Shown: in pieces, positions 7,128 to 64,000 of the stretch
Layout of the letters: the number at the start of each line of letters is the position of its first letter
Numbering within the stretch: position 1 is the stretch's first letter
Origin: Cloeon dipterum
Lineage: Eukaryota > Arthropoda > Insecta > Ephemeroptera > Baetidae
NCBI RefSeq assembly: GCF_949628265.1
Contig: NC_088787.1
Span: 4,702,501-4,766,500, forward strand
Direction: 5' to 3'
Length of the DNA stretch: 64,000 bases
Position numbers and translations under genes: made by a program
Notes under the pieces: model-generated
What the model saw: the letters and a program-made list of their open reading frames with translations, nothing else
Told to the model about the DNA's origin: nothing
Databases searched by the model: none

Positions 7128-8781
7128 CTACAATTCGACGTAGCTGATTCTCTTCAAAATGCAATAATCATTCGTCAAATCGCCTTCGTCGGTCTTGACG
7201 CTGATTTTCGGAGGTTCGATAAAGGTGTTTTCGTGCTCCTTGAAATCAGGGCTGGCGACGAGGTTGCGGAGAAAGCGCGGCCGATCGAGCCGCAGCCGCA
7301 GAGTGAGGCGTCCGCCGGCGGGCACGGTCATGCAATGCTCCACAAACATCCAGCCGTCCTTTTCCAATTTGGTGGGAAACTCAATTTGCCGGCAGAAACT
7401 CTTCTCGAACACCGACACCGAGCACTCGCCCTCCAGGTTGCACGGGTATCCCTCTGCCTCTCTGTTGGTTCATTTTTACCAAATTAAGAAATACAATAAA
7501 CACGGATTAATATATATTTTACCTGATCTCTTCCAGAAATTCCTTTTGCAAGTCCAGCTCGCAGAAAATCTCAAATCCAGTGAGTTTAATGCATTTCTTT
7601 GTGCGCAGTTCCAGCGAAAATTCAAGACTGCCCTGGGGCTCAAACCAATTTCCCTCCCTGAAAATGACCTTTGAACTTTGGATTTCGTGCTCAGGGACCA
7701 AATCCAAAATCCTGGCTTTCCTGGTTCTCCTCTTCGTTGTGTTGGGGCAAATTGTTTTGGGCGTGGGCGGCAGGTCGATAAAACAGCGTTGAGAAGGACT
7801 CGCGGAGTAAAACGCGAGGTATTCTTGCTCTTCGCGCGTCAGGTAGGAGAAAAATCGAGGAAGGTTGGAAAAATCATCAGCATTCAGGGCAAGGAGGCGC
7901 AGTTTTGGCAGGCAGCAATTTCGGAAGAATTTTCTGTTGAATTGATATTAAAATTAAATTTGAATTAATTTTACAGGAGTTGTTACCGTGGATCAGTTTT
8001 TTTCTCACTGATCTCGAGACTGGCGGAGACGAGCGCAAACTCGGAAATATCAGCCATATCTCTCAGGGACAAGAATAACCTGAACGGTTCTTCTTCTAGG
8101 TCGCAGAAACTTCCGTTTTGCAGGCATTCCTTGGTGTTCACACTCAGAAACTGAAGATTGACAGTTTTAAAATAGTCTTAAATATACTATATTTTAATAC
8201 CTTGAGACAAGTCGTAGAGATGGCAAAACTATTGTAGTGCGAGTTTAAGACGTTCCAAACGTTCTCTGCGGAGAGGAACTTGTTCATCAACAATTTGGCG
8301 CTAAATTGGTCTAAACCAATGATTTCGAACCAATCAGCAGCAACAGCTAACTGCACGCAAGCGTCCAAACTGTCCACTTCGGACAACAGGTTGCCGTTAA
8401 GGTGGATGAACCTAAATAGCGTTCGTCAGAATGAGATATTTAAATAAATTTTCAGTCCATACTCGATGGCCAACTTAAGGACGCCTGCATCGATGTCTTT
8501 TAACACTTTTTTCGGCTTTCCTGAAATCGGGTACGCCAGCTCCAAAAGGCGCTTGCTACCTAATGTAAGTAGGTCACTATGAAAAGCTTTGACCTCCTGA
8601 GGAAGAGGATAGAGTTATAATCTGAAAATAAACTATAATTCCGTGATCTTACCGTCATAGTTTGGTCCTTGTTGACGACTTTGATAGCGTAGTCGGCCAA
8701 CTTGTCCATATTTTGGTACCTAATGCTGAGCCAGTTAACTTTGGGGTAGTTTGCCGACAAAGGAATTAACGTCTCTCCCAT
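7128..8781 (-). CDS. BTB-BACK domain protein with probable C-terminal PHR-like domain, 460 residues
   Basis: Six exons: 8781-8653, 8596-8463, 8411-8201, 8150-7987, 7933-7523 and 7461-7128, giving 461 codons including the stop. Residues about 25-125 look like a BTB/POZ fold: FHSDLLTLGSKRLLELA, then VLKDIDAGVLKLAIE and CVQLAVAADWFEIIGLDQF. Residues about 126-215 fit a BACK domain (LSAENVWNVLN, CLKFLSVNTKECLQ, FALVSASLEI). The C-terminal 170 residues look beta-rich with the ending CILKRISYVEL; together with the BTB-BACK order this suggests a PHR-like sandwich as in BTBD1/2/3/6 proteins, but this last call is inference. Such proteins often act as Cullin-3 substrate adaptors. The N-terminal 157 codons and upstream region are duplicated at 13866-14491, where they are fused to zinc fingers. 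Confidence 0.82.
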
Positions 8782-9718: not shown

Positions 9719-11668
9719 TTAAGGATTTTCTATGCCGTGAATAGTCAATAAATGTATTTTCATACTGCTGCCAGTCATTGATTTTCCGCACACCTTGCAA
9801 GTGTCCAGAATTTTGTTTTTTAAATGTGTATTCCTTAAATGTTTAGCCAGGAAATACGGGGAAACGAATTTCCGTTCACACTGGTCACATTCAAATTTGC
9901 GCTCAATCAAAAAGTGCGTCATGGCCAAATGATTTTTCAAGAGTTCAAAATCGGAGAAGCTTTTGTGACAATGCGCGCAATGCTTTAAATTCAGTCTCTT
10001 GTGAATACGATGTAGGTGCTTTGTCAGTTGTTTTTCATTTTTGTAGTAACTTTTGCACGGTTCGCACTTGAATCCTAAATTTTTGTACTTCAAACCGCGC
10101 CAGGAATTGTTTCTGTGTTTCATTTTCAAGTGGTATTTCAGTTCATATGGTGTTTGGAAAGTGTTTGGGCAATTTTTGCATTTCATAAGAGTTTGTTTGC
10201 AATCTCTCAAATGCGATTTGTACAAACCAGAGCATTCAAATTCATTCTTGCAGCGCATGCAGTTCATTCTTTTCAAATGGCGACTCATATTCCCAACAAT
10301 AACATCTGAATTGCAAATTAAGCACACCCGAGATTTGTGATTTTTTCTTACATGATCTGCCAGATGCTGCTTGGTGGACAACATTTTGTGGCATTTGTCG
10401 CACTTGATGGTCTTTGGCAAATGCAAACGAGAAACGTGAAGTGACAATTTCCCTTTCGTTTTAGATTTGAACTCACAATGGTGGCAATTGAAGACTTTTG
10501 CCTCGTCTTCTTCCTTGTGAAAAGCTTCAAAGTGGAAAATCATTTCAGTTTCTGATTTGAAATAACAGAAGCATCCAAAGATTGTACATTTAACCTGAAA
10601 CTTGGCATGTGCACGACGAATATGCCTTCTCATGTCATTGGACCACCGAAGCTCTCTCTCGCAAAATTTGCACTTGATCAATTTCTTCGCTTTGGACGAT
10701 TCGTGCACTTCATTGGTGTGGCTCTCCTTTTCTTCAACAGTGTGGAAATATGTGGCACAATTCCGATTGTCACACCTGATGGCATTTGCGTGCATTTTCC
10801 TCACGTGATACCTAATTCGTGCGGCCACTTTTCCACAGTAGAAACATCTCTTCTTGCTATTTTTACCGTCAGTCTTTGCCTCGTGCTCTGCATTTTGTTC
10901 AGTCTCGCTTTTCAGCAGCTCAATCTTCTCCAGCTGCACCCAGCACTGCTCTACTTTTCCTTCTGTAACAATTAATTCATTTATCAAAATTTGGAAATAC
11001 AAGATAATTGATTTAAAAACATTCTAAAATAAATCTTTAAAATTTTCAGCAAAATATTGATGAAGTATGTATTTGAAGGGTTGGAATGTTTCGTCAATCA
11101 CGGTAAAACGATAATTATTAACTCTTTGTCGTGAAATTATGAATTATTCCAAATAAATTTGCTTATTATATTTAGATTCTCTTCAATAATAAAATATGAT
11201 TTGTGCTTTAGTATGTAGTTTCTGCTATTTCTTAATCCGTAATAACCACCCAATTGTAACTCTCACTAGGCAACATTTTTAATAGTTACCTCCCATATAG
11301 TTCTAAAATAAATTTATAGCTAATTTACCTAGATACTTCCTCCTCAGCTCCTTCACCACGTCGTCTAAATAGACCAGATGCGGCGTCCACCAAGCCAAAG
11401 CTTCGAACTCGCTGACATATTTAGCATGAAACCTAAAAAAATCGTAATTAAAAAAGTCGAAAATACAATGCCACTGCAGCTCTTACTCGGCGTGCCAGAT
11501 GCAGAAACAGCAAATCAGATCTTCGTCCTCGATTTCCTTTGCAAATTCATTGCCGCAGATGTTCAAGAACCAAGTCTGCAGCTTATCTTTTTCCAATTGG
11601 ACAGCCTGGACAGCGCCGTCCGCCGTCGGACGCTCGCAAACGTGGCAGAGCGGCTTCACCAGCGGCAT
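9719..11668 (-). CDS. ZAD-C2H2 zinc-finger protein, copy 1, 509 residues
   Basis: Three exons: 11668-11487 (182 bases), 11432-11329 (104) and 10962-9719 (1244), total 510 codons. The start MPLVKPLC is chosen because it is conserved in all copies. Exons 1-2 encode a ZAD: two CxxC pairs (LCHVC near residue 8 and CCFC near residue 54) with the conserved WW in ALAWW. ZAD domains dimerise and mark insect transcription regulators. Exon 3 encodes about 13 finger units: 11 of C2H2 type and two degenerate ones ending in Cys (CLICNSDV..., MRCKNEFECSG...). The last finger is CKVCGKSMTG with HLLTIH. A nuclear DNA-binding role is inferred. Flanking DNA is shared with the other copies at 18571, 41969 and 44750. 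Confidence 0.88.
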
Positions 11669-12014: not shown

Positions 12015-12310
12015 TTGGTTCGTAGGCATCTCACAAACAAATTTAAAAAAAAAATGTTTTGCATTTTACGTCGAGCAACAAGCAATTCATTAATAATGCT
12101 TTTCTTTGGAAGAAATATCATCAGGTCACCGTGTAATTTGCACTGCAACAGAGACTCTCCTTGGAAAATTCGGTTCCGGCGAACCATTTAAATTCGCCAG
12201 GTGTGCACTTGATGTCTATATTTCATGAAATTGTGATATTTTGAGGGCTTTCAACCACAGTCTCGTTGACTATTGGGTTGACACAGACTTAATTCATCAC
12301 TCTTCGTTCG
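12015..12310 (-). pseudogene. C-type-lectin-like relic a, with LRR exon-1 trace
   Basis: The minus strand shows shifted pieces of a C-type lectin-like domain: PGEFKWFAGTEFSKESL, then a C-terminal cysteine region (VKCKTFF, FVCEMPTNQE). Frameshifts separate the pieces. Just upstream, 12310-12240 resembles the LRR first-exon relic at 17954-18061. The same pair of relics sits next to other zinc-finger copies. Confidence 0.6.
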
Positions 12311-12379
12311 AGTGTTGCAAAAAAAGCATTTTCTGCAGGCAGCAAACCAAACCTATTGTGGTCTACCTGATGCTTTGAA

Positions 12380-12700
12380 TATATTTTTTTAGTCAAATGA
12401 AAATAAACTTTGATTTCAAACAATTTATTAGACAGTAAAGCTACAGAGTTCAAATCCGTCGATTTAGAAATTATTTGTTATTATTTCAATTATAGCTCAA
12501 AAAATATAATTCTCCAAACCTTACCCTTATTTATTACGACAAAATATTAAAACCATTATCCTACCAAACGAAAGGACAATATTTATAAATTTCATTAATA
12601 GAAAACAACCTCTGCCATTTTAAAATTCTGATATATTCAAAAGTTCAACAATTGTATGAAAAAGGGGCATAATTAAGGATTTTCTGTGCCGTGAATTGTC
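12380..12700. repeat. Shared 3' flank of the zinc-finger gene copies
   Basis: The block containing AATAAACTTTGATTTCAAAC and TTATTAGACA, followed by about 250 AT-rich bases, precedes the 3' end of every zinc-finger copy (about 9465-9718, 12390-12700, 18290-18570, 27430-27700 and 44490-44750). It marks the duplication unit and probably carries the 3' untranslated region. No gene is seen in it. Confidence 0.55.
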
Positions 12701-12774
12701 AGTAAATGTATTTTCACACTTTGGCGAGTCACACATTTTCCGCACACCTTGCACGTGTCCAGAATTTTGTTTTC

Positions 12775-14491
12775 CTAATGAGTGAATCTTTTATGAAGAG
12801 CCAGGAAAGACGTGGAATCGAATTTTCTTTCACACTGGTCACATTCGAATTCGCGGTCAATCAAATTGTGTTCCGCAGCCAAGTAGTTTTTCAAGTTTGC
12901 AAAATCAGTGTAGCTTTTGGGACAGTCCTCGCAGTGCTTCAAATTCAGTGTCTTGTGAACATGATTCAAGTGGTCTTTCAGAATTTTTTCACTTTTGCAC
13001 GGATCGTTTCTATGTGTCCTATTCAAGTGGTATTTCAAAAGAGAATACTTCTGATAAGTCTTTAGGCATTGTTGACATGTGAAAAGAGATTGTTTGCATG
13101 TTTTCAAGTGCGATTGGTACAAACCTGAGCACTCAAAATCATTTTTGCAGCGCGTGCAGCGGGTTCTTTTGCAATGAAATTTGAAATATTTTACAACGAC
13201 ATTTGATTTGCAAGTTGAGCACATCCGAAACTTGTGTCTCTCATTGACATGGTGAGCCAGAATTTGCTTCGAGGCGAACATTTTTTCACATTTGTCACAC
13301 TTGACTGACTTGGGCAAATGAAAACCAGAAATGTGGGTCGTCAAATTGTAATTCCTTGAGGTTTTATACTCGCAATGCTGACACATGAAGACTTTTTCGT
13401 CGACTTTCTTGTGAGCTGTATCAAAGTGAATCTTCATTTCGAATTTGGTTTTGAAATATGAAAGACAACCACGAAAATTGCATTGAACCGGATATTCAGA
13501 ATGAACACGATGAACATGCCTTCTGATTGCACAGGTCCCCCGATACTCCTTTTCGCAAAAACTGCACTTGATCAATTTCTTCGCTTTGGACTTTTCATGC
13601 ACGTCCTTGGTGTGTGCCTCCCTTTCCTCGAAAGTTTGGAAATAAGTGGCACATTTATGATAGCCACACCTGATGGCATTCTCGTGTATATTTCTCACGT
13701 GACTACTAACATTTGCGAAAACATGTCCACAGTAGATACATTTCTTCCCGCTCTTCCGCTCTTCCGTCTTTTCTTTGTGATCTGCATTTTCTTCCTTCTC
13801 ATTTTTCGCCAACTTAATCTGCAAAATTTCGTTTTGCAGGCAATCGTTGCTTTCGACACCCAGATACTAAAAATTAATATTAGTTAACAATTAGGTAAAA
13901 TATACCAAATTTATACCTTGAGACAAGTAGTAGAGATGACAGAATTGTCTTTGTGTGAGTTTAAGACATTCCACACATTCTCCATGGAGAGGAACTTGTT
14001 CATCAACAATTTGGCGCTAAATTGGTCCAAACCAAGGATTTCGAGCCGATCGGCCGAAACAATTAATTGTAAGCAATTGTTCAAACTGTCCACTTCGGAC
14101 AACAGGTTGCCGTTGAGGTGGATGAACCTAAATAGCGTTTGTCAAAATTAGATAATATTTAAATACAATTTCAAGCCTTACTCGAGGGCCAACTTAAGGA
14201 CGTCCGCATCGATGTCTTTTAACACTTGTTTCGGCTTTCCAGGAATTGGATACGCCAGCTCCAAAGAGCGCTTGCTGCCTAATGTCAGGTCACTATGAAA
14301 AGCTTTGACCTCCTGAGGAGAGAGTTAAAATCTGAAAATTAACTATAATTCCGTGAACTTACCGTCACATTTTGGTCCTTGTTGACAACTTTAATGGCGT
14401 AGTCGGCCAACTTGTCCATTGCTTGGTACCTGATGTTGAGCCAGTTGACTTTGGGATAGTTTGCCGACAGAGGAATTAACGTCTCTCCCAT
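12775..14491 (-). CDS. Chimeric BTB/BACK - C2H2 zinc-finger protein, 520 residues
   Basis: Exons 14491-14363, 14312-14182 and 14127-13917 copy exons 1-3 of the BTB gene at 7128-8781, with the same phases. Exon 4 (13866-12775) starts like BTB exon 4 (YLGVESNDCLQNE) and passes without a stop or frame change into the zinc-finger exon of the ZAD family (LAKNEKEEN..., CIYCGHVF). Residues 1-157 give the BTB fold and start of BACK; the rest holds about ten usable finger units. Finger 10 is cut by an in-frame deletion that leaves DPCKSEKILKDH. Finger 12 ends at TAG (12775-12777) where relatives have TTG, and an in-frame thirteenth finger (CKVCGKCVTR) lies unread beyond it. The promoter comes from the BTB gene. 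BTB plus C2H2 is the layout of BTB-ZF transcription factors such as Tramtrack. The model is supported by phase; expression is unknown. Confidence 0.75.
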
Positions 14492-15005
14492 TTTGAGTTG
14501 AAATGCGACTGATAACTAAGACACGACTTGACACTCTGAAGGATGCAGACGTACTCACTCGCTGGTTTGAGGATTATTGGCGGTCTTGTGGAAAGGCACA
14601 CAATAAAAAAGGTCAAAGTACAAAATTCTCCAACATGATTGGTGTTTAGATTCAAACATTTATTTTCCTTCTGTAGACACACAAAACAAACAAATGCTTG
14701 TTTCTTGAGTAAACAAATCTTTTTTCGTCTTAAAAATTGTCCTCAATATTTCTTTAATCGCTCATATCATTTCGTAATTTCAGAATTCCAAATTCATTAG
14801 ATTTCAATCACCAAAGTTATAGTGTAATAATTCTGTAAATTTATTGAATTATTGTGTGTGGGACTTGAATCATCTTCGTCTAACACCCAATACCAAGAAG
14901 ACCGCACTATAGTTTGTTCAAAGTATTTAAGTAGCAAAATATATAACGGACTCGCAAGTCCAAGTCTGTTGCTGAGCTCCATTACTTCCATATTTTTGAC
15001 TTCAA
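14492..15005. promoter_or_regulatory. Shared upstream region of chimeric BTB-zinc-finger and LRR genes (copy 2)
   Basis: Diverged duplicate of 8782-9309. A TATA-like ATATATAAC lies near 14938, about 68 bases before the LRR start codon at 15006 and in the right orientation for it. The BTB-proximal half is nearly the same in both copies. Confidence 0.5.
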
Positions 15006-17039
15006 ATGGATATCGAACAAGATGAGCTGGAAATTATTGCAATGCTGCCGACAAAACGACATGAAACGAGTTTGGTGGAACTTGTAGTCAAAAATATTAT
15101 ACATAATATGGAGCAATACATCCCAAAAGATGAAGAGGACGTGCTGAAGAAGGATAATCTAAGTGGGTTCTCACATTTTAATTTAAAATTAACATATAAC
15201 ACGTTTCTTGCTCATTAAGTAACGAAAATTTTGAGGATATTCAAAATTGCTGAGCAGAAAAGGAAGAAAAAAATTATATTGCGTAAGTGATTCAAAAAAT
15301 TTATAATTTGGATTTAATTCAAACATTTAATTTCAGCCCATCATCTGTGCAATAAAATTCTGGAGACACTGTTGACACAGGAAAGCTGGGATACGAATGA
15401 AAACGCGTTCCAGATCCACCTGAAATTCCTCCCCAATATCCTCAACAGCCAGACGAAAGAAGTCGACCTGCATAGCTTCATGGCATTATGTCCTGAGCCC
15501 CTTCGAGCAGCGCAAACCTTAAATGTTGTACGAATCATTGCAAAATTCGCCCCGAACATCGAGTTTTTCACAATCGGAGAAGATCCTGAACAAAAATCTC
15601 TTTCAAAAATCATGATGTTGGAGCGAAAAATTATTTTTGATATTAGCAGAATGAAAAAACTGAAGATGCTGGTGATTTTAAATTTCGTAATCAAATTTAG
15701 ACACCTGAAGAAGATCTGTAAGAACCTCAAAAAACTGGTTTACGTAGATGCCAATGTTGCCTCATCTCATAACTCTTATTATTCAATCACTGCGCCGGAA
15801 TGGTTTGACCGCGACTTCGAGGAAAGTTTTTCCCGCCTCAAAGTGTTCCTATTCAGGCTTTATTCGAGGGATGGATATTCATACACACTTGATAGCCCTA
15901 ACAATTTAACCCGTCGCTGCATCCAACTCTTGCCCTCGCTGGAAATCGTCCAACACCACGCTTACATCAAAACTTTCTATCAGGGTTACTTCCTTCCAAT
16001 GACACCACCATCGGCACCTTCATCCCTGAGACACCTATGCGTTTTACTAAGAAATTCATCTTTCGAAATTGATCAGCTGGCTTGGTTTCCAAACGTCACC
16101 CATTTGTTGGTAATTCTTAATTCTAGCACTGCTGGAATTTCATTGTTGACACCCTCAGGAAAGTCAGGAACCTGTCAAAAATGAAACTCCAGCTCATTTA
16201 AAATGATACCTAAAATGAACCAATTCCAGATCAACATGTACACATTCACTGATGACCCCAGGATGATCACTCCCAAGGAAATCGACGCATTGTTGCAATT
16301 TAATGCACATTTAAAATCACTCGCTCTGCTCGGCTGCCCTAGAGAGGACATTCTGGACAGATTTTTAGACAGATACGGCAAAAACTTGCACACTCTGTCC
16401 GTCTGCAATGTAATAGATAGAGATCTGAAATATAAGTTCAAGAAAATATTCAACGCTTGCCCGGAACTGGAAACACTGGTTTTGATGGGAGTTGTCATGA
16501 CTGATGAGGAGCCGTTCAACTCTTTTGCTCAGCTGAAAAACTTACAGTGGATTGAACTAGCCCCGTAAGAGCTTGGAAATTTTAAGATGATTTTATTTGT
16601 TTTTGTTTTTAATTTCAGGACAAAAACAGTCAACCTATCAAACGTCTTGCGAGCTCCAAAACTGGAGAATTTTTACATGCTTGACTCTTGCCAGAACTTG
16701 GAGGATATTAAGCACGTTTCGACCCTGATTAGTAACAAGCAAATCCCGAGCAAATTGAACAAATTCCGTTACATCTCGCACTGTGGGCCTTACATGGACA
16801 TTGATTCACTTCTTGGAGAACTAGTCAAAACGTCTCAAAGTGCCCTTGATTCTCTACCAAAATTATCAGCATTTGAGGCATTTTTCTTTAAGTCGAATTT
16901 TTTCACAGAGAATGAGTTGCCTTTGGACTGCGCGATGATTGCTTTAGATATTATGAAGCTTGCAGACAACGTGAAAATCTTACACGAAGGTGTAATGCTT
17001 CATTCCCATCGTTTCACTTTTCCTTCGTTTATTGTCTAA
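15006..17039 (+). CDS. Intact LRR-family protein, subfamily 1, 582 residues
   Basis: Five exons: 15006-15162, 15220-15282, 15337-16109, 16230-16564 and 16619-17039, giving 583 codons with the stop. It starts MDIEQDELEIIAMLP. Compared with 3082-5265, the intron after exon 3 is absent: the reading passes straight from TKEVDLHSFMALCP to VVRIIAKFAPNIEF. Leucine-rich motifs are easy to see (MKKLKMLVIL, CKNLKKLVYVD, CPELETLVLMG, LKNLQWIEL, SNVLRAPKLEN). The protein lacks a signal peptide and transmembrane segment. It lies head-to-head with the chimeric BTB gene, 514 bases apart. Function unknown. The exon 3 acceptor (CAG before CCCATCATC) and exon 2 (63 bases) follow the phase of the relatives. Confidence 0.85.
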
Positions 17040-17313
17040 ACACAGGTTTTTAAAGTTTTTCGGTTAAAATAATATTATAGATTTCACTGTGGGCACTCAA
17101 TAAATAAAAATGGAAATAAAACAAAAGCACAAAGTTTAAACTGTTAGATTCTCATTATTGTATTGCACATATACCTTGTTTAAAAACAAAAATCACATCC
17201 TGATGAGATATACTGACTCTCACATAAATTGAGACAAGAGGATAGCGTCAAAGCATTCTCGGTGAGGTTAAAATATTAATTTATTTGGATAAAAAAAACT
17301 TCTAAATGGCACT

Positions 17314-17385
17314 ATGGAAAACGACGAGAGACTTCAACTGGCGCAAATGCGGCTGCGAAATTTTCAGCGTCCCAACAGCCTTCTA
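17314..17385 (+). pseudogene. Relic of LRR-family first exon
   Basis: ATG at 17314 opens MENDERLQLAQMRLRNFQ, very close to the first exon at 5265 (MDPDDRLQLAQIRLHNLQ). After PNSL the sequence changes to repeat DNA also present near 27170-27240. No later exon follows. Confidence 0.7.
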
Positions 17386-17489
17386 TCTCCTGGGCCCTTT
17401 TACATTTTGAATTCTTCCCTGTTCAAATTACGTTATTTGATCTCAGCTCTTAGAGAAATTTATGAGTCTCTTTTTTATTATTGAGGAAA

Positions 17490-17575
17490 TGAGAGAGCAA
17501 ACATTTCGGAGCGCCAGAAAATTGGGAGTATATGCAACCCGCGGTGACTGCGAGTTTCGCGTTTTGCATAAGAAT
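17490..17575. repeat. Copy of a short conserved flank repeat
   Basis: GGGAGTATATGCAACCCGCG and GACTGCGAGTTTCGCGTTTT recur near 21160, 27290, 43880 (decayed) and 47260. In each place the sequence accompanies a lectin relic or a zinc-finger flank. It appears non-coding and marks the duplicated block. Confidence 0.5.
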
Positions 17576-17699
17576 TGTTTAATATTTTTATTTTCCCGAC
17601 GAGTCTCTTTAGCAGTTAAAAATAAAAAATTACAATGTAAAAGCGTAATATTTATTAATCCAGTGTTGCTGTAAAAAATGATTACAGTGTAATATTATA

Positions 17700-17953
17700 T
17701 CAGAGAGTTTGTAGCTTTCTTGGATCGGAGGCAGCTCACAAATAAAATTAAAAAAATATATTTTGCACTGCACATTTATCAACTCATTAGAAATGCTGTT
17801 CATTGGAAGATGTACGCACGTTTCGAGACCTGCACCGAAATCTTCCGGGTCACCTTCAGATTTAAACCAGAAAAGACAGTCCTTAGAAAACTCGATTCCG
17901 TCGTACCTTTAGAAGTCGCCAGGTTCACGTCCGATGTCCAATGCCCACAACCA
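17700..17953 (-). pseudogene. C-type-lectin-like relic b
   Basis: The minus strand reads LDIGREPGDF, a stop, then RYDGIEFSKDCLFWFKSEGD, PEDFGAGLETCVHLP and FICELPPIQE. This is the second half of a C-type lectin-like domain, with its conserved final cysteines. The TAA after GDF replaces the usual Gln/Arg codon. It abuts an LRR first-exon relic at 17954. Confidence 0.7.
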
Positions 17954-18061
17954 CTAATTATGATGAAATTTGGTTATTTTGTGGTTTTCAACCGCAGTAT
18001 CAAACAGGCTTTGGAATTGACACATGTTTCGCAGCCTTAATTTTGTCAGCTCCATCTTCAT
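17954..18061 (-). pseudogene. Relic of LRR-family first exon, joined to lectin relic
   Basis: The minus-strand ORF MKMELTKLRLRNMCQFQSLF runs 35 codons and ends in TAG. It resembles the LRR N-terminus (LQLAQIRLHNLQEQSLF). No donor or later exon is present; the lectin relic follows at once. Unusual junction of two gene families. Confidence 0.55.
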
Positions 18062-18570
18062 TATATATTAATCTTAATCATTGTTCTATAAAAAATATAT
18101 GCTCCAAAATCGCTTAAATCGGAAACACACGACAATCATTGGTGGCGCTGGTTGCGTTGCGGTTTCCTTTCCCTCCACCTTGTCATTCATTGTTGACGTC
18201 ATTCTTCTTGCGGGATGCATAAAAGCTGCTCTTCCTGCACGCGGTGAACTGATCAAGATTTTGATTTTTCAATATACAATGAAGTGAAATTAAACATATT
18301 GATTTCAAACTATTTATTTGACAATAAAGCTACAGGCAGCTACAGGTTGCATATACATATTCATCAATTTAGAAAATTTGTTATTACATCACTTTAATTG
18401 CTACAAAAAAAGTATAATTTGCGTCTATATACCTCACCCTTATTAGTCAAGACAAAAAAAATTAAAATCATAATACGACCAAACGAAAAAACAATAAAGC
18501 AAAACAACCTCAGCCTTTTTAGAAATTTGATATTTTCAACAGATAAAAAATTGAATGAGAAATGGCACGG

Positions 18571-20561
18571 TTAAGGATTTTCTTTGCCGTGAATTGCCAG
18601 TAAATGTTTTTTCACACTTTGGCGAAACATTGATTTTCCGCACACCTTGCAAGTTTCCAGAATTTTGTTTTTCAAATGTGTTAGTCTTTTATGTTTAGCC
18701 AAGAAAGAAGAGGAAACGAATTTCTTTTCACAGTGGTCACATTCAAATTTGCGTTCAATCAAAAAATGCGCCGTCGCCAAGTGGTTTCTCAAGCGAGCAA
18801 AATTAGGGAAGCTTTTGGGACAGTGTGCGCAGTGCTTCAAGTTCAGCTTCTTGTGAATACGATTCAAGTGGAGTTTCAAGAGTTTTTCACTTTTGTAGTA
18901 CCTTTTGCACGGCTCGCACTTGAATCCAAGATTTTTGTACTGCAAACCAAACATGGAATTGTTTCTGTGTTTAATTTTCAAGTGGTATTTCAGTTCAAAT
19001 GGATAATGGAAAGTCTTTGGGCATTTTTGACATTTGAAAAGAGTTTGTTTGCAATCTTTCAGATGCGATTGGTACAAACCTGAGCATTCAAATAAATTTT
19101 TGCAGCGCTTGCACGCGGTCTTTTTCAAATGATTTGTCCTAGATTCCACAGTGATATTTGAATTGCAAATTTTGCACATCCAAAACAAATGTTTCTCATT
19201 GACATGCCTGGCAAGAAGTTGCTTCGAGGCCAACATTTTGTCACATTTGTCACACTTGAACGTTTTAGGCAAATGAAAACGAGAAATATGACGCGTCAAA
19301 TGGCTATTCTTTGAGGTTTTATGCTCGCAATACTGACACTTAAAGACTTTTTGCTCGTCTTCTTTCTTGTGTGTTGAATCAAAGTGAACCTTCATGTCGA
19401 ATTCAGTTTTGAAGTATGAAAGGCAACCACGAGAATCACATAGTACCGGAAATTCAGAATGAACACGTCGAATATGATTTCTGATGTCTCTCGACCACCG
19501 AAACTTCATCTCGCAAAAATTGCACTTGATAAATTTCTTTGCTTTGGACGTTTCATGCACCTCTTTGGTGTGGCTCTTCTTTTCTTCAACAGTGTGGAAA
19601 TATGTTGCACAATTCTGATAGTCACACCTGATGGCATTTGTGTGTTTATTTCGCATATGAGTACTAATTTTTGCGACAACTTGTCCACAGTAGAAACATT
19701 TTCTCCCGCACTCTCGATCGTTCGCATTTTCCTCGGGCTCTGCATTTTCTTCCTTCTCGCTTTTCGGCAACTCAATCTTCTCCAGTTGTACCCAGCACTG
19801 CTCTGCTTTTCCTTCTGTAACAATTATTACACACCGATATTCGTAAATAAAAGATAATTTATTTAAAAACATACAAAAATGTTTCCATAAAATTTGGACC
19901 TTTAAAGATATAATGCGTTTGATGGTTGGAATCAACCGCGGTAAATCCGTAATTTCTGCCAGTTTGTCGTGAAATTATAAATTATTATCCCTAATATATA
20001 ATGTGAAATTATAAATTATTAAATTGTCCCTAATATATAATTTCACTCTCTTCAATAAAAGTATACGATTTGCGTTCCAGTTGATTCTGCTATATTTCTT
20101 AATCCTTAATAATTTCCTTACTCGTTTATTCCGAATTCTACCTCTATTTTTCTTTCTAGCATTTTTAACAGTTACCTACCGCATATAGTTATAAAATAAA
20201 AAAATGTAAAGCTAATTTACCTAGATACTTCCTCCTCAGCTCCTTCGCCACGCCATCCAAATAAACCGAATCTTGCGGCCACCAAGCCAAAGCTTCGAAC
20301 TCGCTGACATATTTAGAATGAAACCTATGTAAAAATTTTATATTAAAAGTCAAAAAAAGAATTCGGCTGCAGCTCGTACTCAGCATGCCAGATGCAGAAA
20401 AAGCAGATCAGATCTTCATCCTCGATTCCGTCGGCAAATTCATAGCCACAAACATTTAGGAGCCAAGTCTGCAGCTTCTCCTTGTCCAATTGGACAGCCT
20501 GGACAGCGCCGTCCGCCGTCGGACGCTCGCAAACGCGGCAGAGTGGCTTCACCAGCGGCAT
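18571..20561 (-). CDS. ZAD-C2H2 zinc-finger protein, copy 3, 509 residues
   Basis: Exons 20561-20380, 20324-20221 and 19814-18571 have exactly the lengths of copy 1 (182, 104 and 1244). The ZAD holds LCRVC and CFFC pairs and ALAWWPQDSVYLDGV. A Glu-rich acidic linker (about residues 100-135) leads to 13 finger units, starting CFYCGQVVAKISTH and ending CKVCGKSMFRQ with HLLAIH. Fingers 7 and 8 end in Cys instead of the second His. Most linkers are longer than the TGEKP type. A sequence-specific DNA-binding regulator in the nucleus is inferred from the family. The reading frame is fully open, so it is probably functional. A lectin relic lies upstream and LRR debris downstream. Confidence 0.88.
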
Positions 20562-55690: not shown

Positions 55691-56201
55691 ATTATAAAAT
55701 TGTTTTAAGAAGAAAAACCTGTTTCCATAACAAACATTGCTTTCTTTGCAATGAAAAACGCGGTCATACGAAATGACCATTATTAAAAAATTTCCGAAAA
55801 ATTCGACCTATGCAACATGCATGAAATCAACCATCTTGTGATTCCAAGACATATTCCAAATGAAAATTATAGTTAAAAAATACTCGAAGGAGCTGGCTCG
55901 TGCACTTTAACGATTACTATTTCTTAAAGAACCTATCAATTTGCATCAATACTATGAAAAAATGGCCTGATGCCTGTATGGATCCAGATTTAGCAGCTGA
56001 TTTCTGAATTCAATTGAAAAAAACTCGGGCAAAGAGTGCTTTGGTCATTTTTGATGTCTTCAGGGAAAATTGTCAACCCTAACTGAATTTTCTTATATCT
56101 TTTGTAGAAAATTGCATAAAAAGAAAAGAGGCAATTTAATAAAAATGTACATTCAATATTTTAATATTAAAAAATATGCAGTTGATTTCGTATATCGATG
56201 A
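55691..56201. other. Gap with no gene recognised
   Basis: Short AT-rich spacer before the 3' end of the next LRR gene. Confidence 0.4.
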
Positions 56202-58485
56202 TTAAGCAGAAATTGCTTTTCGAAGAGCGTCATTTAACTCTGTGTAACTTTTAAAGTATTTTGAAAAGTTTTCATCGTTCTCAACCTCGGAAATTTGCCT
56301 CGCTTCTTCAATATCCATAACAAATTTCTTCAGATTCTGCAAGATTTCGCGTCTGTTAATCCGAGCTATGACGCTGGCGTTGTCGCTGAAGTCAATATTT
56401 GGTAGGGAAATGTAGATGTGTTCAAGTAGCGGCGCTGACAAAATGCTTGAGAAAGAGACTCCATCAGATGAAAATCTGCAATGATTCAAAATTAATATGA
56501 GTGGTACAAGACCGAAAAATTTGTCAATTAATTGAAATTTTAACTTTGATCCTGCCTGCCTTTCCTTTTATTTTATTTTTCTTGAGATTCAATTATATAT
56601 GCAGCAAATTATAAAACAAAAGCAAAAAAAAAAACTTTTTAAAACCAAAGTGAAAAATTAAAAATCCAACAAAAGGGATTCCAGGGTTACAAAATAAAAC
56701 TGGATGAAAAATTCAAAAAATCATGCACCCGCTCGTGTGTAATAAGCATAAAATACCAACCAGGATGACAAAAAATGTTTGATTGTTACTGAATAAATGA
56801 AAAATATTATACTATGAATAATTTACCGGCTTTCAGAGCTCCATGCGAATTCTTCCAATTGTTTCATCGCATCGACAGGGGCATCATTCCCAACCAAAGT
56901 GCAACAATGTAATATCAACGCCTGAAGATTAGGGCAGAGTCTGAAGATTTCGCTAAAGGTCATCTTCTCCTTGCTGTCAATATCGTTTAGAGTCAACTCC
57001 TGAAGTCTCTCGCCGTTTCTTTTCATGAAACACCTTAAAGCGTGCGCCGATTTATTGCCGCATTTAATCTCTGCGTATTTTATTTGTGGAAGGAGCGGAA
57101 ACTCATCCATTTCTTCCATATCCTCCATTCTAGAGAGAACTATCTGAATTACAACAATGATGATTAATTTACTTGAATTTAATCATGTCCCTATAATTAT
57201 TTCTTACTTCTAATTCCGTAAGTTTTTCAGCAAACGAACAAACCAAACTTAAATCCGAGGTTTTTTTTGGCCGTAAACTCAATTTGGTGTTGGGCTCGCC
57301 ATCTGGGTCCCATGTTGGCATCGTAGTGTTCAACTCCAACTTTAGCCTCCCAAGTTTACAATCATCCGCATCAATGGAGACGTTTACGAAGTCATTCCTG
57401 AAGGTGACACTTGGAGATTCCACGTCAAATCTGACAAAGTTTGCTTGAAGTCTTTTCAATTTTTCGCATCGACGAGAAATGTCCAATATTCCTGACAAAG
57501 GGACATGAACTTGAAATATCGTAAGGATGGCCAAATTCTTCAGCTGAATAATCGAATCCAATTCGCGTTCTTCAAGTGAATATTCTTCATCCCTGGTTGG
57601 GTTATTGATTTTTAATTCTCTCAGGTTAGGAGTGTTCGCCCCCAAACACCTGATGAACTGAAATCGTAATAAACATAATTAATTTGTAATATTATTTTAA
57701 TTCATGAATTTACCTCTTGAAAGCGAGAGTTGGACATAGTAGAGGAAGCAGGGCAGTACATGCTCATATCATGGGTGTCAAGTTTTGTGTACAATTTCGA
57801 GTTGATCAGGAAAGGCAGCATTGCCCATAGTTTGTCTTGGTGATCATATTGACGGTCGCATTTTGAATAATGTTTTTTTGCCATTTCTAACATTTCTTTA
57901 AGCATCTTCTGTCGAAATGGTGCTGAAAATTAATAAATTATAATCAATTTATTTGACTTTTGTGATACAGTTTAACATCATGTTAATTTTTTAACCAATT
58001 TTCAGTACATTCCGTGGGATGTGAGTTCACTGAATGTCTAAAAACACCACTGAGAGGAGAACATTGGGCCCGAATGGCCATCTTTTTGCCTCCACGCACA
58101 GAGATCATTTGATTGAAAAGCCAGAAATAACTCTCTTTGCCATCACTGACATTAGTTAACGATTATAAGATGCTAGAATTGCTGAAAAACTCCCATTACT
58201 TTGACAATCTTTTGATTGCCTTAAAAATTCGAGTCAACGTGCTACTGGTAACAGTTCTTAAATCAAAATATTTAAATAGTATTAGTGGCTAACTGACATT
58301 ATGTTCCAAAATTTTTTGTGGACATTTAAAAGCAACTTAAATTTTGAAATTTGTTTTAGTCCATATAACCATAACTTATCGATAATGCTTTACTTACCAA
58401 TAATGGTTTTAACAAGGTCCTTGTCATATTTGTCGATGTTGTCAACCAGAGCTTTGATAGCCAGGTCCAATAGACTGGGAGGATC
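56202..58485 (-). CDS. LRR-family protein, subfamily 2, about 446 residues (start codon unresolved)
   Basis: Coding exons 58485-58398 (88 bases), 57922-57714 (209), 57657-57208 (450), 57143-56827 (317) and 56475-56202 (274). The phases equal those of the gene at 52226-54215, where the 88-base exon follows a three-base ATG exon. I could not find that ATG exon here; a CAG/GTCAGT donor near 58662 may end a 5' untranslated exon. The protein starts [20 protein letters not shown], contains [20 protein letters not shown], and has LRR motifs such as [23 protein letters not shown] and [13 protein letters not shown]. It is closely related to the gene at 61409-63727, with intron sequence also conserved, so the duplication is recent. 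Function unknown. Confidence 0.77.
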
Positions 58486-58744
58486 CTGCAAGAAAAAAGA
58501 TATTAAGTTTTTTATTAGCAAGAAGTTAAGCACATAAGAAGAAGATAGCATTTGATTTGAGGCGCAGAATTATTTCTCATGGCAACGAGGGTGAAAGGCA
58601 GAAATAAAATCGTTAGATCACCTTTTTGATAAAATATTCTCTGCTTTTTTGAACTGAACTGACCTGCACAAAAATTACAAGTAAGAAAAATTTAAAATAG
58701 AAAATAAAACAAAAAATAAACACGATGGCTGTTATTTTTATTTA

Positions 58745-59640
58745 AACAAGCGCTTGCTGTGGCGCGCTTGGCGCCTCCCGCCGGGCGACTGTCCGTCGAG
58801 ACTGGTGCGTTGATTGAGTTGAAGCTAATCGACCTTGTCGATTCTCGTGAATCGTGTTCAATATACCGAAAAATCGCAAGTGGTTGCGTCGGAACGGTCA
58901 GCGCGGCGTTGGAAAAATCGCGAAAAATTGCCCCAGGGCCAATTTCGCGGAAGTAATAAAATGTTTAAAAATAACCGAAAAAAGGGGTAATTTTGATTTG
59001 AATAAAAAATTTATTAATATATTAATAAAAATCCCTCAAAATGGATACCTGTTCGGTGTGGCAAGCCGCTAATAGCCATTAAACTCGCGTTCAAACTAAA
59101 ATTCGAACAACTTTTCGACCTCGACTTTTGCGAAAATTTTGCCCTTGGAAGAAGCGTGGTTTCTCTCAGAATGATCGGATTTTGCAAAACCGCACACGGC
59201 CAGACATGCACCACCGAGGCGCATCTCACCGTGCAGCAATCGGGGCCCGGCGACCCACGGGACCCTGGCCAGGCCCCGAAAACAAAAAATTTGCAATGAC
59301 TAATTCGCGTTTTTCAACTGGAAAATTCAAAGCTCGGCTCCTGTTTTTCGCACGGTCAAAAAACAATGTTGGACACACTCGTGATAAAATTCTGCGAATG
59401 AGAGAAATTGTCGCCTGCCCCGCACGCCCCACCCCACCCCACCATCGAACCACCAAACATCGCCGTAAAAAGGGCTACATTTTATTAATTTTTCTATGGG
59501 CCCCGAGGAAGGTTGTTCATTTAGCGCCGTGCGGCGTCGATCGGAATGGATTTGATTTTTTTACCCAGGATCATAAGGAAGCGATTTAATCGGCGGGTTC
59601 CTGCTGGGCCCCTATGGGCCCGCGGGCGCGTATTAGCTTT
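58745..59640. other. GC-rich island of unknown nature
   Basis: GC-rich stretch (CGCCTCCCGCCGGGCG, GGGGCCCGGCGACC) in AT-rich surroundings. ORFs are short and overlap on both strands. It is similar in texture to 38880-40620 and lies upstream of the minus-strand LRR gene at 56202-58485, so a promoter island is possible. Confidence 0.4.
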
Positions 59641-60830
59641 GTTAAGAGTGAATGAACAATGTGCACGCTTTTAATTGCGTTTACGAAGGAACTAGTAATG
59701 ATTCACATCTCAATCATCGCGACACAGTTTCAAAATTCATTTGCACTAGCCGATTTTTAAATAGAAGCGTGGCTGCGCGTAATTATTCAAAATACACGCC
59801 TTAAAATTATTAGCTGGCACTGTTTTTGAATTTTAAGCAGCGAGAAATTATGGAAGAAAACTGAAATGCGAGTTATGAAAACTGTTCTTACCATTTTTGT
59901 TGTTTGTGCAGTGGGAGAGAGAACAACACGTAGCGAGCGAGCGAGGGTGAACACACGACTGAGCGTCTCCTTGCTTTTGCGGGAGAATCGAGGAGCCTCT
60001 TTTCCGTGCGCGCATGGCGGGTGCGGGTATTATTGTTGCCGCAGGTGGTAAATCTGGCGGCGGCCTCAAACGCTTCGTAATAAATGACGAAATCTTTCCT
60101 TATATACCGCCGCGTTGCTCGACACTTAAATTACCTTTTACGTAATTTTACCAACATATTTTCATCATAGCTCACAAGCAATAAATATTTTTACACCAAA
60201 CATAGTTTTGTAGCTCTGTAACAGCAGGCGCCAAACACGCGCGTTAAGTGGCGCTGGGCGGGGAGCAACAGGCTAAATGAACTGTCTAAAATTCCAAAAT
60301 ATTTTTAATTTTACTCAATAATAAATTGATTTTTGTTAAAAATATTTCTCTTAAGTGAGCGAGCCCGTTTTTCGGGTGTGGGTTTTTCCTGTTGCATCTC
60401 GCTGCTTTCATAAATTTAGGCAAGTGGCATCTTTGTTCTTTTTCCTTTGCTTGGGGCGCTAGCAATCGCGTCAATCGCACAGCGACGAAGAAAATCAGGG
60501 GCAAAAAGGACAGCAAAAGACCAGCCGCACGATGCGCGTGCAGCGCTGCGTGCATTTTCGATGATACATATAATAATTGTCGAGAAAAACTACTTCGAAT
60601 GCAGATTTTGACTGCTTTTTGAGGCATCGAAATGCATTGGACGGCTTAGATGAGTTAATTAAATCTTTTAATAAAATTAATTCACGCACAATCAAGGTTT
60701 TTAATTATCTTTTCTCAATATTTCATCTTTTTTCTGCTTTGGTAAGGTTTTTTCATAATAAAAATTATTAAATCTGATTAATAGTGCGAGAGAAAATAAT
60801 GTGCGTCTGCTGGCCGGCCGCCCCACCAGA
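59641..60830. other. Gap with no gene recognised
   Basis: Includes a moderately GC-rich part near 59900-60070 with a 43-codon ORF (MAGAGIIVAAGGKSGGG) that lacks support. No RNA gene was recognised. Confidence 0.4.
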
Positions 60831-60990
60831 TCTGACGCATGCGTAGTTCGCGCACAAAAGGTTCATATTATTTGGCGGCAAAAAAAGTTTCCGCGAGTGC
60901 TACGCACGTCACGCTGAACTTTTTGGTCGGAAAAAATACCAAATTTACCTAATTCGACCCTCAGGAATCGATTCGTGTGCTCAAAATTTT
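60831..60990. mobile_element. Solo arm of the 49305-type foldback element
   Basis: TCTGACGCATGCG, TTTGGCGGCAAAAAAAG and AATTCGACCCTCAGGAATCG match the right arm of the element at 49305-49700 in the same order. The left arm is missing. Confidence 0.7.
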
Positions 60991-61408
60991 CGTCAAAGTG
61001 GGCCTTTAATGGCACTGAGTAATTTTAACCCGAATTAATCACTGAATTTAATCTTTAGAATTTAACTAGAGTCAATTTAATTTACTATTTTTTGCCTGCT
61101 GAACTGGGTGGTCTTCGCAGCTCAGAGACAGATTTACGAGATTAGCGCTGAGCATTAAATTTGTTAATTCCATCTGCTGGTTGGGGGGTGAAAGGTCGGT
61201 TTCGAGGGAAATAAAAGGTCGTTGTCCGATGAATGAACGGCGAGGGCGAGAATAAAAGAGGAAGGAAAAGAAGCAGGTGAATGGATCGAGCCAGAAATCG
61301 GGTAAGAGGATTATAGCGCGCGCGATTTCAGTAAAATACATAATTTAATATATACAATATTTTTATTTTAATATTGAAAAATATGGAATCGATTTTGTGT
61401 ATCGATGA

Positions 61409-63727
61409 TTAAGCAGAAATTGCTTTAGCAATAGCGTTATTTAACTCTGTGTATTTTTTTGAGTATTTTGAAAAGTCAATTTCGTAAATGAACTTGGCCA
61501 TTTCAATACGCATTTCAAATTTCTTCAGATTCCGCAAAATTTCGCGTCTTTCAATCCGAGCAATGACGGCGGCGTTGTCGCTGAAGTCAATATTGGGATG
61601 GTCCATTTTGACGTATTCCAGCAGCGGTGCAGACAAAATGCTCGAAAAAGTGGCTTCATTAGAAAATTCACTGCAATTACTCAGAATTAATGTGAGGCAA
61701 AAGAACGAAAATATATTTGTCAATTCATTGAAATTTCAACATGGGTCCTGGCTGCTTTCGTTTCGTGATGTTTTCTATTGTTTAGATTAAATTACATGTT
61801 CTGCAAATTAAAAACCAACAGAAAAAATAAACTTTTTTAAAATCAAAGTGAAAAATAAAAAATCTAAAAAAAGGAATTCCAGGGTTACGAATTATAGTTG
61901 GCTGACAAATTCAAAAATCGTGCACCCTCGTTTGTAATAATTATAAAATACCAACCAGGATAATAAAAAAATGTCTGATTGCTTCTAATTAAATGATAAA
62001 TATTTTACAATCAATTTCTTACTCAATTTCTCGAGAGAACCATTCGAATCGCTTCAATTGGTGCATCGCATCGACAGGGGCATCATTCCCAACCAAAGTG
62101 CAATGATTTAATTCCAACGACTCAAGATTGGGGCAGAGACTGAAGATTTCGCCAAAGGTCATCTTCTCCTTGCTGTCAATCTTTAAGAGGGTCAACTCCT
62201 GAAGTCTTTCTCCGTTTCTTTTCATGAAACACCTTAAAGCGTGCGCCGATTTTTTGCCGCAATCAATCCATGCGCTTTTTATTTGTGGAAGGAACGGAAA
62301 CTCATCCATTTCTTCAATATCCTCCACGTCAGAGGAATTAAACTAAAACAATAAATTGAAAATTAGTTTAAAAAATGTTTACTTAAATTTAGTGATGTCA
62401 CTAAAAAGGAATCCATTTCTTACTACTACTATTTCCGTAAGCTTTTCAGCAAACAAACGAACCAAATTAAAATCCGAGGTTTTATTTGGCCGTAGACTCA
62501 ATATAGTGTATTGCTTGTTATCTGCGAATCTCGGGACCCATGTTGGCATTGTAGTATTCAACTTCAAATCAAGACTCCAATCATCAAAATTACACGCATG
62601 GATGGAGACGTATACGAAGTCATTCCTGAAGGTGACACTTGGAGATTCCACGTCCATTCCGATATCAGTTGCTTCAAGTCTTTTCAGTTTTTCGCATCGA
62701 TGAGAAATGTCCAAAATTCCTGACAAAAGGACACGAACGTAACGTATCTCAAGGATTTCCAATTTTTTGAGCTGAATAATCGAATGCAGTTCGCGTTCTT
62801 CAAGGAAATATCCTCCTTTGAAGTTTGGATCATAGATTTTTAACTCCCTCAGGTTAGGCGTGTTCGCCCCCAAACACCTGATGAACTGAAATCGTAAATA
62901 TAAATAATTTGTAATATTGTTTTAATTCATGCATTTACCTCTTGAAAGCGAGAGTTGGACAAAGTAGAGGAACGGCAGTACGTGCGCATATCACGGGTGT
63001 CAAGTTTTGTGTACAATTTCGAGTTGATCAAGCAAGGCAGAATTGCCCATAGTTTGTCTTTGTGATCATCTTGGCCGTCGCATTTTGAACGATGATTGTG
63101 TACCATTTCTAACATTTCTTTCAGCATCTTCTGTCGAAATGGTACTGAAAATTAATAAATATATCGATTAATTAGACTTTTGTGATACAGTTTAACATCA
63201 TGTTAATTTTTTTACTCCTTTTCAGTGTATTCCGTGGGATTTAAATTGAATATAGCCAACCGCTGACAATGAGCGGATAACATGGGGCCCGAGTGGCTGC
63301 AGAGTAGCGTATTGGGTCCAATGTGGCCATCATTTCGCCTCCACGCACAGAGATCATTTAATTGAAACGCCAGAAATAACTCTATTTGCCATCAGTGACA
63401 TTAGTTAACGAGTACTAGATGCTAGACTTGCTGAAAAACTCCCATCACTTTGACAAATCTTTTGATTGCCTTAAAAGTTCGAGTCAACGTGCTACTCGTA
63501 ACATTTCTTGAATCAAAATATTTAAATAGTATTAATGGCCAACTGACATTATGTTCCAAAAATTTGTTGTGGAACTTTAAAAGCATCTTATATTTTGAAA
63601 TTTGTTTAGTCCATAATTTTTCGATAATGCTTTACTTACCAATAATGCTCTTGACAAGGTCCTTGTCATATTTGTCGATATTGTCAACCAGAGCTTTGAT
63701 TGCCAGGTCCAATAGCGTGGGAGGCTC
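61409..63727 (-). CDS. LRR-family protein, subfamily 2, about 446 residues (start codon unresolved)
   Basis: Coding exons 63727-63640 (88 bases), 63144-62939 (206), 62885-62424 (462), 62342-62023 (320) and 61670-61409 (262), in the same phases as the neighbour at 56202-58485. The N-terminus reads [20 protein letters not shown] and the marker is [23 protein letters not shown] motifs include [34 protein letters not shown] and [13 protein letters not shown]. The ATG is not seen before the 88-base exon; a CAG/GTCAGT donor near 63903 may close a 5' untranslated exon. The 495-base first intron is conserved with the neighbour. No signal peptide. Function unknown. Confidence 0.77.
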
Positions 63728-64000
63728 CTGCAAGATAAAGATAATTTTGTTTTATAAGCAAGAACTGCTTCGTATAAGAGGAAAATAACATTTGATTTGA
63801 GGCGCAGGATTATTTCTCATGGCAACGAGGTTTAAAGGCGGAAATAAAATTGTTATACGATATTTTTGATCCAATATTCGGTTTTTATTTTTAACTGGAC
63901 TGACCTGCGCAAAAAATACAAAGAAGTAATAAAACGCGTTATAAATAAAAGTAAATAAATAAACACGCGGGCGATGTCCGTGAAGACAGGTGCGCAGATC

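What the first reader, a model, noticed from the sequence alone, without database searches (positions are those of the whole stretch)
12775..14491. In-frame fusion of a BTB-BACK gene to a C2H2 zinc-finger array makes a new BTB-ZF gene
Seen: exons 1-3 and the first 13 or so codons of exon 4 copy the BTB gene at 7128-8781. The same exon then continues, in frame and without a stop, into the finger exon of the neighbouring ZAD family. Known: BTB plus C2H2 is the layout of a large transcription-factor class. Inference: unequal recombination between adjacent duplicated genes replaced the ZAD with a BTB domain and gave the fingers a new promoter. Both source genes survive nearby, so the junction (about 13826-13840) can be read directly.
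Basis: partly seen in the sequence, partly recalled or inferred. Interest (0 to 1): 0.92.

Follow-up and report, generated by a model that had tools for sequence, protein, structure and literature searches.

The report
Mayfly BTB–zinc-finger fusion gene pair
In a mayfly genome the front of a BTB-type protein gene has been joined in frame to the zinc fingers of a different gene, and the joined gene was later copied; this looks like a new DNA-binding protein gene caught early, though nobody has yet shown that it is switched on.

Summary
The fusion is real. On the minus strand at 14491-12775 a four-exon model with canonical introns encodes 520 aa: a BTB-family front end, then C2H2 fingers, joined inside exon 4 at 13827-13820. 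The genome is Cloeon dipterum. A second copy with the identical junction lies 137 kb away in inverted orientation (94% DNA identity), so this is no assembly slip.

The donors share no homology at the junction and at least 2 filler bases are present, so non-homologous joining or deletion fits better than unequal recombination. The neighbouring finger gene is the least similar of 19 unfused finger exons compared, so the finger donor is unidentified. Three of 13 finger units are broken or lost, all before the copies split. The BTB and ZAD labels fail Pfam on these sequences; BTB is supported by a relative with the same exon boundaries, ZAD is not.

Selection evidence is mixed. Frame-breaking indels are absent where about 6 are expected, and the fused BTB part evolved about four times faster than unfused copies in coding, but mostly not in non-coding, DNA. 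But likelihood dN/dS does not exclude 1, and gene conversion confounds. Expression is untested. Most likely a young chimeric gene; a decaying fusion is the main rival.

The parts
14363..14491 (-). fusion exon 1 (BTB-derived, ATG at 14491)
   Evidence: GT donor, in phase; 90.7% aa identity to the BTB gene over 43 aa
14182..14312 (-). fusion exon 2 (BTB-derived)
   Evidence: AG/GT sites, in phase
13917..14127 (-). fusion exon 3 (BTB-derived)
   Evidence: AG/GT sites, in phase
13828..13866 (-). fusion exon 4, BTB-derived start (13 codons)
   Evidence: alignment with four BTB copies
13820..13827 (-). junction: last BTB-like bases plus at least 2 filler bases; a 7-bp inverted repeat, 13838-13832 / 13826-13820, spans it
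   Evidence: the repeat was read by eye
12778..13819 (-). fusion exon 4, finger-derived part; finger units 1-9 and 12 keep their ligands, 10 and 11 are broken
   Evidence: alignment of 21 finger exons, motif scan, count by eye
12775..12777 (-). TAG stop of the fusion; cuts off finger unit 13
12673..12774 (-). former finger unit 13 after the stop, frame still open to the ancestral stop in both copies
   Evidence: second copy; this copy
12189..20002 (.). segment with an inverted copy at C2:4847861-4855682 (93.4% over 7,879 columns), which carries the second fusion copy
7128..8781 (-). unfused BTB-family gene, six exons, 461 aa (same family as the front-end donor)
9719..11668 (-). neighbouring ZAD-like/C2H2 gene, three exons, 509 aa (same family as the finger donor, not its closest member)

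Best explanation
A chimeric gene of Cloeon dipterum. Shown: a BTB-family gene's first three exons and 13 codons of its fourth are joined in frame to the finger exon of a ZAD-like/C2H2 gene, and the fused gene was later copied in an inverted segment. Inferred: a head-to-tail pair (BTB gene upstream of a finger gene on one strand, a layout still seen elsewhere) lost about 3 kb between them by non-homologous end joining. That removed the rest of the BTB gene, the finger gene's own promoter and its ZAD-like exons, so the fingers came under the BTB gene's promoter. The 520-aa product would use its BTB-type part to pair or to bind partners and its remaining 10 fingers to bind DNA, that is, it would work like a BTB-ZF transcription factor. 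Whether it is made, dimerises or binds DNA is not shown.
For: Intact spliced frame with GT/AG sites. Identical junction in two copies 137 kb apart, inverted. Of 7 close BTB loci, the 2 fused ones lack the later BTB exons and the 5 others keep them. At C2:3999000-4008999 a BTB gene is followed on the same strand by a ZAD-like/finger gene whose finger exon begins about 3 kb after BTB exon 4. No alignable homology at the junction. Between the two copies 0 frame-breaking indels in 1,556 aligned coding bases against 22 in 2,663 non-coding bases of the same duplication: 12.9 expected by length (P 2.6e-6), 6.1 after scaling by divergence (P 0.0023). Coding mismatch 46/1556 against non-coding 167/2663, P 1.2e-6.
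Against: dN/dS between copies: 0.48 by counting (bootstrap 0.25-0.98) but 0.73 by likelihood, not different from 1 (2dL 0.78); finger part alone 1.01. Branch models: stem of the fusion 0.79 in fingers and 0.99 in the BTB part, tips 0.77 and 0.44, none significantly different from 1. The chance of no stop among 46 neutral changes is 0.13. Exon 1 diverged about as fast (12/129) as upstream DNA (16/154), while exons 2-4 and introns 2-3 all differ little, which looks like gene conversion between the copies. Three finger units are broken or lost. No listed protein of either C. dipterum assembly spans the joint in the two searches made, though annotation of the whole family is thin.
Confidence: 0.55

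Rival explanations
1. A real but non-functional fusion: the deletion made an open frame by chance, it was copied along with its segment, and it is drifting towards a pseudogene.
For: Branch dN/dS near 1 on the stem in both parts. Three finger units broken or lost, one of them damaged further in the second copy by a 9-nt deletion. The fusion's finger score is below the Pfam zf-C2H2 cut-off (17.4 bits against 25.2) while the neighbour's passes (34.4). Survival without a stop is not unlikely, P 0.13. No listed protein spans the joint.
Against: No frame-breaking indel in either copy where about 6 are expected. Start codon and the splice sites of all three introns kept in both copies. Fusion coding DNA differs less than non-coding DNA of the same duplication, although conversion can also cause this.
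Confidence: 0.35
2. Made by homologous unequal crossing-over between duplicated neighbours.
For: Direct and inverted duplicates are abundant around it.
Against: BTB exon 4 and the finger exon share no alignable sequence at the breakpoint, and filler bases lie between them.
Confidence: 0.07
3. An expressed fusion that acts mainly through its BTB-type part (for example by pairing with the unfused BTB proteins) while the fingers are passengers.
For: Between-copy dN/dS is lower in the BTB part (0.43, 2dL 2.4 against 1, not significant) than in the fingers (1.01).
Against: Most finger ligands are still kept in both copies; the BTB part itself changed fast on the stem.
Confidence: 0.1
4. Assembly or mis-join artefact.
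For: None found; repeats in the region could in principle mislead an assembler.
Against: Two copies with the same junction, 94% identical and inverted; no N in the 164 kb read.
Confidence: 0.02

Closest known systems
BTB-ZF (ZBTB / POK) transcription factors
   Same: N-terminal BTB-type part, linker, C-terminal C2H2 array in one chain; the class is described in PMC1257465 and PMC11426971 (passages read).
   Different: The BTB part comes from a local BTB-family gene with a long C-terminal region, is not hit by Pfam BTB, and was joined recently; the class described there carries a BTB with an N-terminal extension that allows dimerisation, which was not tested here. Similar layout by independent origin, not by descent.
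Insect ZAD-ZNF genes
   Same: The fingers derive from a locally expanded ZAD-like/C2H2 family, as ZAD-ZNF genes expand in insect lineages (PMC7655104, passages read).
   Different: The fusion has no ZAD-like exons, and Pfam zf-AD did not ring on the neighbour's front end or anywhere in this C2 cluster.
Arthropod TTK-type BTB factors
   Same: Arthropod BTB proteins with C2H2 fingers (PMC11426971, passages read).
   Different: I see no FxLRWN motif by eye in the fusion's N-terminus, and it has about 10 fingers where that paper gives usually one or two.
Chimeric genes from joined genes (for example jingwei, Sdic; recalled, from no call)
   Same: New reading frame made of parts of two genes, with relatives of the sources surviving in the genome.
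   Different: Here the product has the layout of a known transcription-factor class and already exists in two copies.

Membership tests
BTB-ZF | BTB domain at the N-terminus | tested here: inconclusive
   Pfam BTB does not match the fusion or its BTB relatives P0001, P0003, P0004 (only BACK on P0004, E 0.11, below cut-off). A relative at C2:2469700-2472200, whose exons (joined by eye) end at the same points and match P0003 at 39% over residues 91-161, scores 42.6 bits for BTB against a cut-off of 20.5. Structure model too poor to judge (mean pLDDT 45.5).
BTB-ZF | C-terminal array of C2H2 fingers | tested here: met
   A motif scan finds 8 non-overlapping units in each fusion copy and 11 in the neighbour; with two units that the scan skips, counted by eye on the alignment, 10 of 13 units keep all four ligands (units 7 and 8 as C2HC). 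Pfam finger scores of the fusion are below the cut-offs, so this rests on the ligand pattern.
BTB-ZF | BTB dimerisation through an N-terminal extension | not testable with these tools
   needs protein work
BTB-ZF | acts as a DNA-binding transcriptional regulator | not testable with these tools
   no expression or binding data
ZAD-ZNF | N-terminal ZAD | tested here: not met
   the ZAD-like exons of the finger family are absent from the fusion; exons 1-3 are BTB-derived
chimeric gene | one open frame made of two source families | tested here: met
chimeric gene | transcribed | not testable with these tools
   no RNA data held

The most novel reading that the evidence does not exclude
A BTB-ZF-type regulator born recently and independently in a mayfly by swapping a ZAD-like front end for a BTB one through a single non-homologous deletion. 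It changed quickly after birth (fused BTB part 41 changes against 10 in the unfused L009 copy, with non-coding DNA about even in that comparison) and is now held in frame as a diverging pair of copies. It would be a live example of how a transcription-factor class can arise again from parts.
Probability: 0.35. Interest if true: 0.72.

Novelty: new variant of a known kind. Interest (0 to 1): 0.52.

Why it matters
[quoted passage not shown] Here the joint, members of both donor families and a duplicated descendant can all be read in one genome, so the steps from accident to gene can be tested: deletion, damage to fingers, fast early change, copying. None of the titles and abstract starts listed in my eight paper searches (some searches listed only part of their hits) reports this fusion.

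Tried and rejected
Neighbour as finger donor: rejected by tree and identity. The donor stays unidentified: in the tree the fusion sits on its own long branch, and the best match changes from window to window along the exon, as conversion among paralogues would give.

Missing annotation as evidence of silence: rejected. Of 61 proteins found with the neighbouring finger gene only 9 lie on the 37.46-Mb contig, while one search finds 88 finger places there; and the intact neighbour is itself not listed at full identity.

Positive selection: stem dN/dS is not above 1. Readthrough of the TAG: the frame after it is still open in both copies, but 100 bases are too few to mean anything.

Row choices: one search used 21 places, the fusion's two copies and 19 of the other 110 places, those for which DNA was in hand, leaving out one cut by a locus end; the finger branch models used 10 of those 21; the BTB models used 7 loci. 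The Fisher tests used counts rounded. One search counted only sites at which the three unfused copies A, L009 and L010 agree. Searches counted two bases beyond the stop codon as coding.

Full report
Where it is. The window is C2:4702501-4766500 of a 190-Mb genome in 10 contigs. Protein names of the closest database matches, two of them on a contig of exactly C2's length, make it Cloeon dipterum, a mayfly.

The gene model. On the minus strand exons 14491-14363, 14312-14182, 14127-13917 and 13866-12775 join in phase, each of the three introns with GT and AG, and encode 520 aa; the stop is TAG at 12777-12775. The unfused BTB-family gene (8781-7128, six exons, 461 aa) and the neighbouring ZAD-like/finger gene (11668-9719, three exons, 509 aa) also give clean models.

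The joint. Searching the genome with 2,101 bases around the fusion, matches to four unfused BTB loci end at query base 878 and matches to finger loci begin at 881 or a few bases later, window 13823 and 13820. In the letters, the BTB side agrees to 13827 and the finger side from 13820; two to six bases between fit neither donor. The stretch 13838-13832 is an inverted repeat of 13826-13820, which is what a snap-back repair step would leave; this is inference from one junction, read by eye. The joint lies about 38 bases inside the finger exon, so the ZAD-like exons and the start of the finger exon are gone; on the BTB side everything after codon 13 of exon 4 is gone.

Two copies. The same fusion lies at C2:4853160-4855263 on the other strand, 94% identical, with all four exons, the same stop and an open frame of 517 aa. 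It belongs to an inverted duplication, window 12189-20002 against C2:4847861-4855682, 93.4% over 7,879 columns. Of 7 close BTB loci (13 exon matches), 2 carry the fusion and 5 keep the later BTB exons. A search with a BTB relative gives 74 exon-level matches, the close loci included, so more distant relatives are numerous.

How it arose. At C2:3999000-4008999 a BTB gene is followed on the same strand by a ZAD-like/finger gene, with about 3 kb from BTB exon 4 to the finger exon. One deletion in such a pair gives the fusion. This is inferred; that locus's own finger gene is not the closest one.

State of the fingers. Against 19 unfused finger exons, units 1-9 and 12 keep their ligands; 57 missing nucleotides (one or two deletions) break unit 10, a His-to-Tyr change breaks unit 11, and the stop removes unit 13. 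All three are shared by both copies, so they predate the duplication; the second copy also lost 9 nt in unit 11. In the tree the fusion sits on its own long branch, and the neighbour lies in a fully supported clade that excludes it; the neighbour is the least similar of the 19 (72.1% against 79.5%).

Is the front end BTB? Pfam does not say so for the family itself. A relative at C2:2469700-2472200 has matching exon boundaries by eye, matches P0003 at 39% over residues 91-161, and scores 42.6 bits for BTB. So it is a diverged BTB by relationship. The ZAD label rests only on a Cys-x2-Cys ... Cys-x2-Cys pattern: no zf-AD match on the neighbour's front end, and none of the 40 zf-AD matches found in the genome lies in C2:3-4.9 Mb.

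Selection. For a working gene: 0 frame-breaking indels in 1,556 coding bases against 22 in 2,663 non-coding bases of the same duplication (expected 12.9, or 6.1 scaled by divergence); coding mismatch 3.0% against 6.3%; non-synonymous differences 31/1251 against 167/2663 (P 1.2e-7); synonymous differences do not differ from non-coding (15/300, P 0.45). Against: likelihood dN/dS between copies 0.73, not different from 1; fingers 1.01; fingers stem 0.79 and tips 0.77 (background 0.49); BTB part stem 0.99, tips 0.44 with 2dL 3.1 against 1 (background 0.51); none of these is significantly different from 1. P is 0.13 of escaping a stop by luck. Conversion between the copies is likely: exon 1 differs at 12/129 and upstream at 16/154, but exon 2 at 1/131, exon 3 at 6/211, introns 2 and 3 at 4/104. 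AT-rich non-coding DNA may also gain indels more easily than coding DNA.

Speed. In the BTB part the fusion took 41 changes against 10 in the unfused L009 copy (outgroup A; 41 to 11 with outgroup L012). Against L010 it is 45 to 9 and 43 to 11. Non-coding DNA gives 23 to 19 and 18 to 23 against L009, 25 to 11 and 19 to 19 against L010. So coding sped up in all four comparisons and non-coding in one. Changes before the duplication are over-represented in coding DNA (32 stem, 13 crown) against non-coding (13, 24), P 0.0017. This fits fast change after birth and slower change later, or relaxed constraint plus conversion; the data do not separate them.

Annotation and literature. No listed protein spans the joint in two searches, but the family is thinly annotated. 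None of the titles and abstract starts listed in eight paper searches reports this fusion (three of them listed only part of their hits). For the classes I read passages of PMC11426971, PMC7655104 and PMC1257465, not whole papers.

Verdict. A real, duplicated, in-frame gene fusion with the layout of a BTB-ZF factor by independent origin. Function is somewhat more likely than not but unproven.

Noticed in passing
C2:2.3-4.9 Mb and C4:29-32.2 Mb: Large local expansion of ZAD-like/C2H2 finger exons, at least 112 places (88 on C2, 24 on C4), nearly all with open frames (2 of 124 rows hold a stop); database annotation on C2 lists few of them.
   Followed up: partly
L012, C2:35823741 downwards: The unfused BTB gene there has TG instead of AG before exon 2, and the annotated protein P0004 (LOC135935784), which fits this locus by eye, begins only at exon 3.
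   Followed up: partly
proteins P0001, P0016, P0025, P0060, P0068: Predicted proteins of the other C. dipterum assembly seem to join this family's exons to BTB, trypsin, ankyrin, caspase or lectin parts (by Pfam accessions and names listed); probably gene-caller run-ons, but some could be real fusions.
   Followed up: no
12774-12673: After the fusion's TAG the last finger unit is still in frame up to the ancestral stop in both copies.
   Followed up: partly
C2:4840772-4842344 and 4842859-4844435: A 1.6-kb inverted repeat of 99.2% identity, more alike than any other repeat of 600 bases or more listed in that 164-kb comparison; recent copying or conversion.
   Followed up: no
window 56077-63975 and onwards: Dense direct and inverted duplicates, 81-95% identical, over frames that look leucine-rich-repeat-like by eye.
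   Followed up: no
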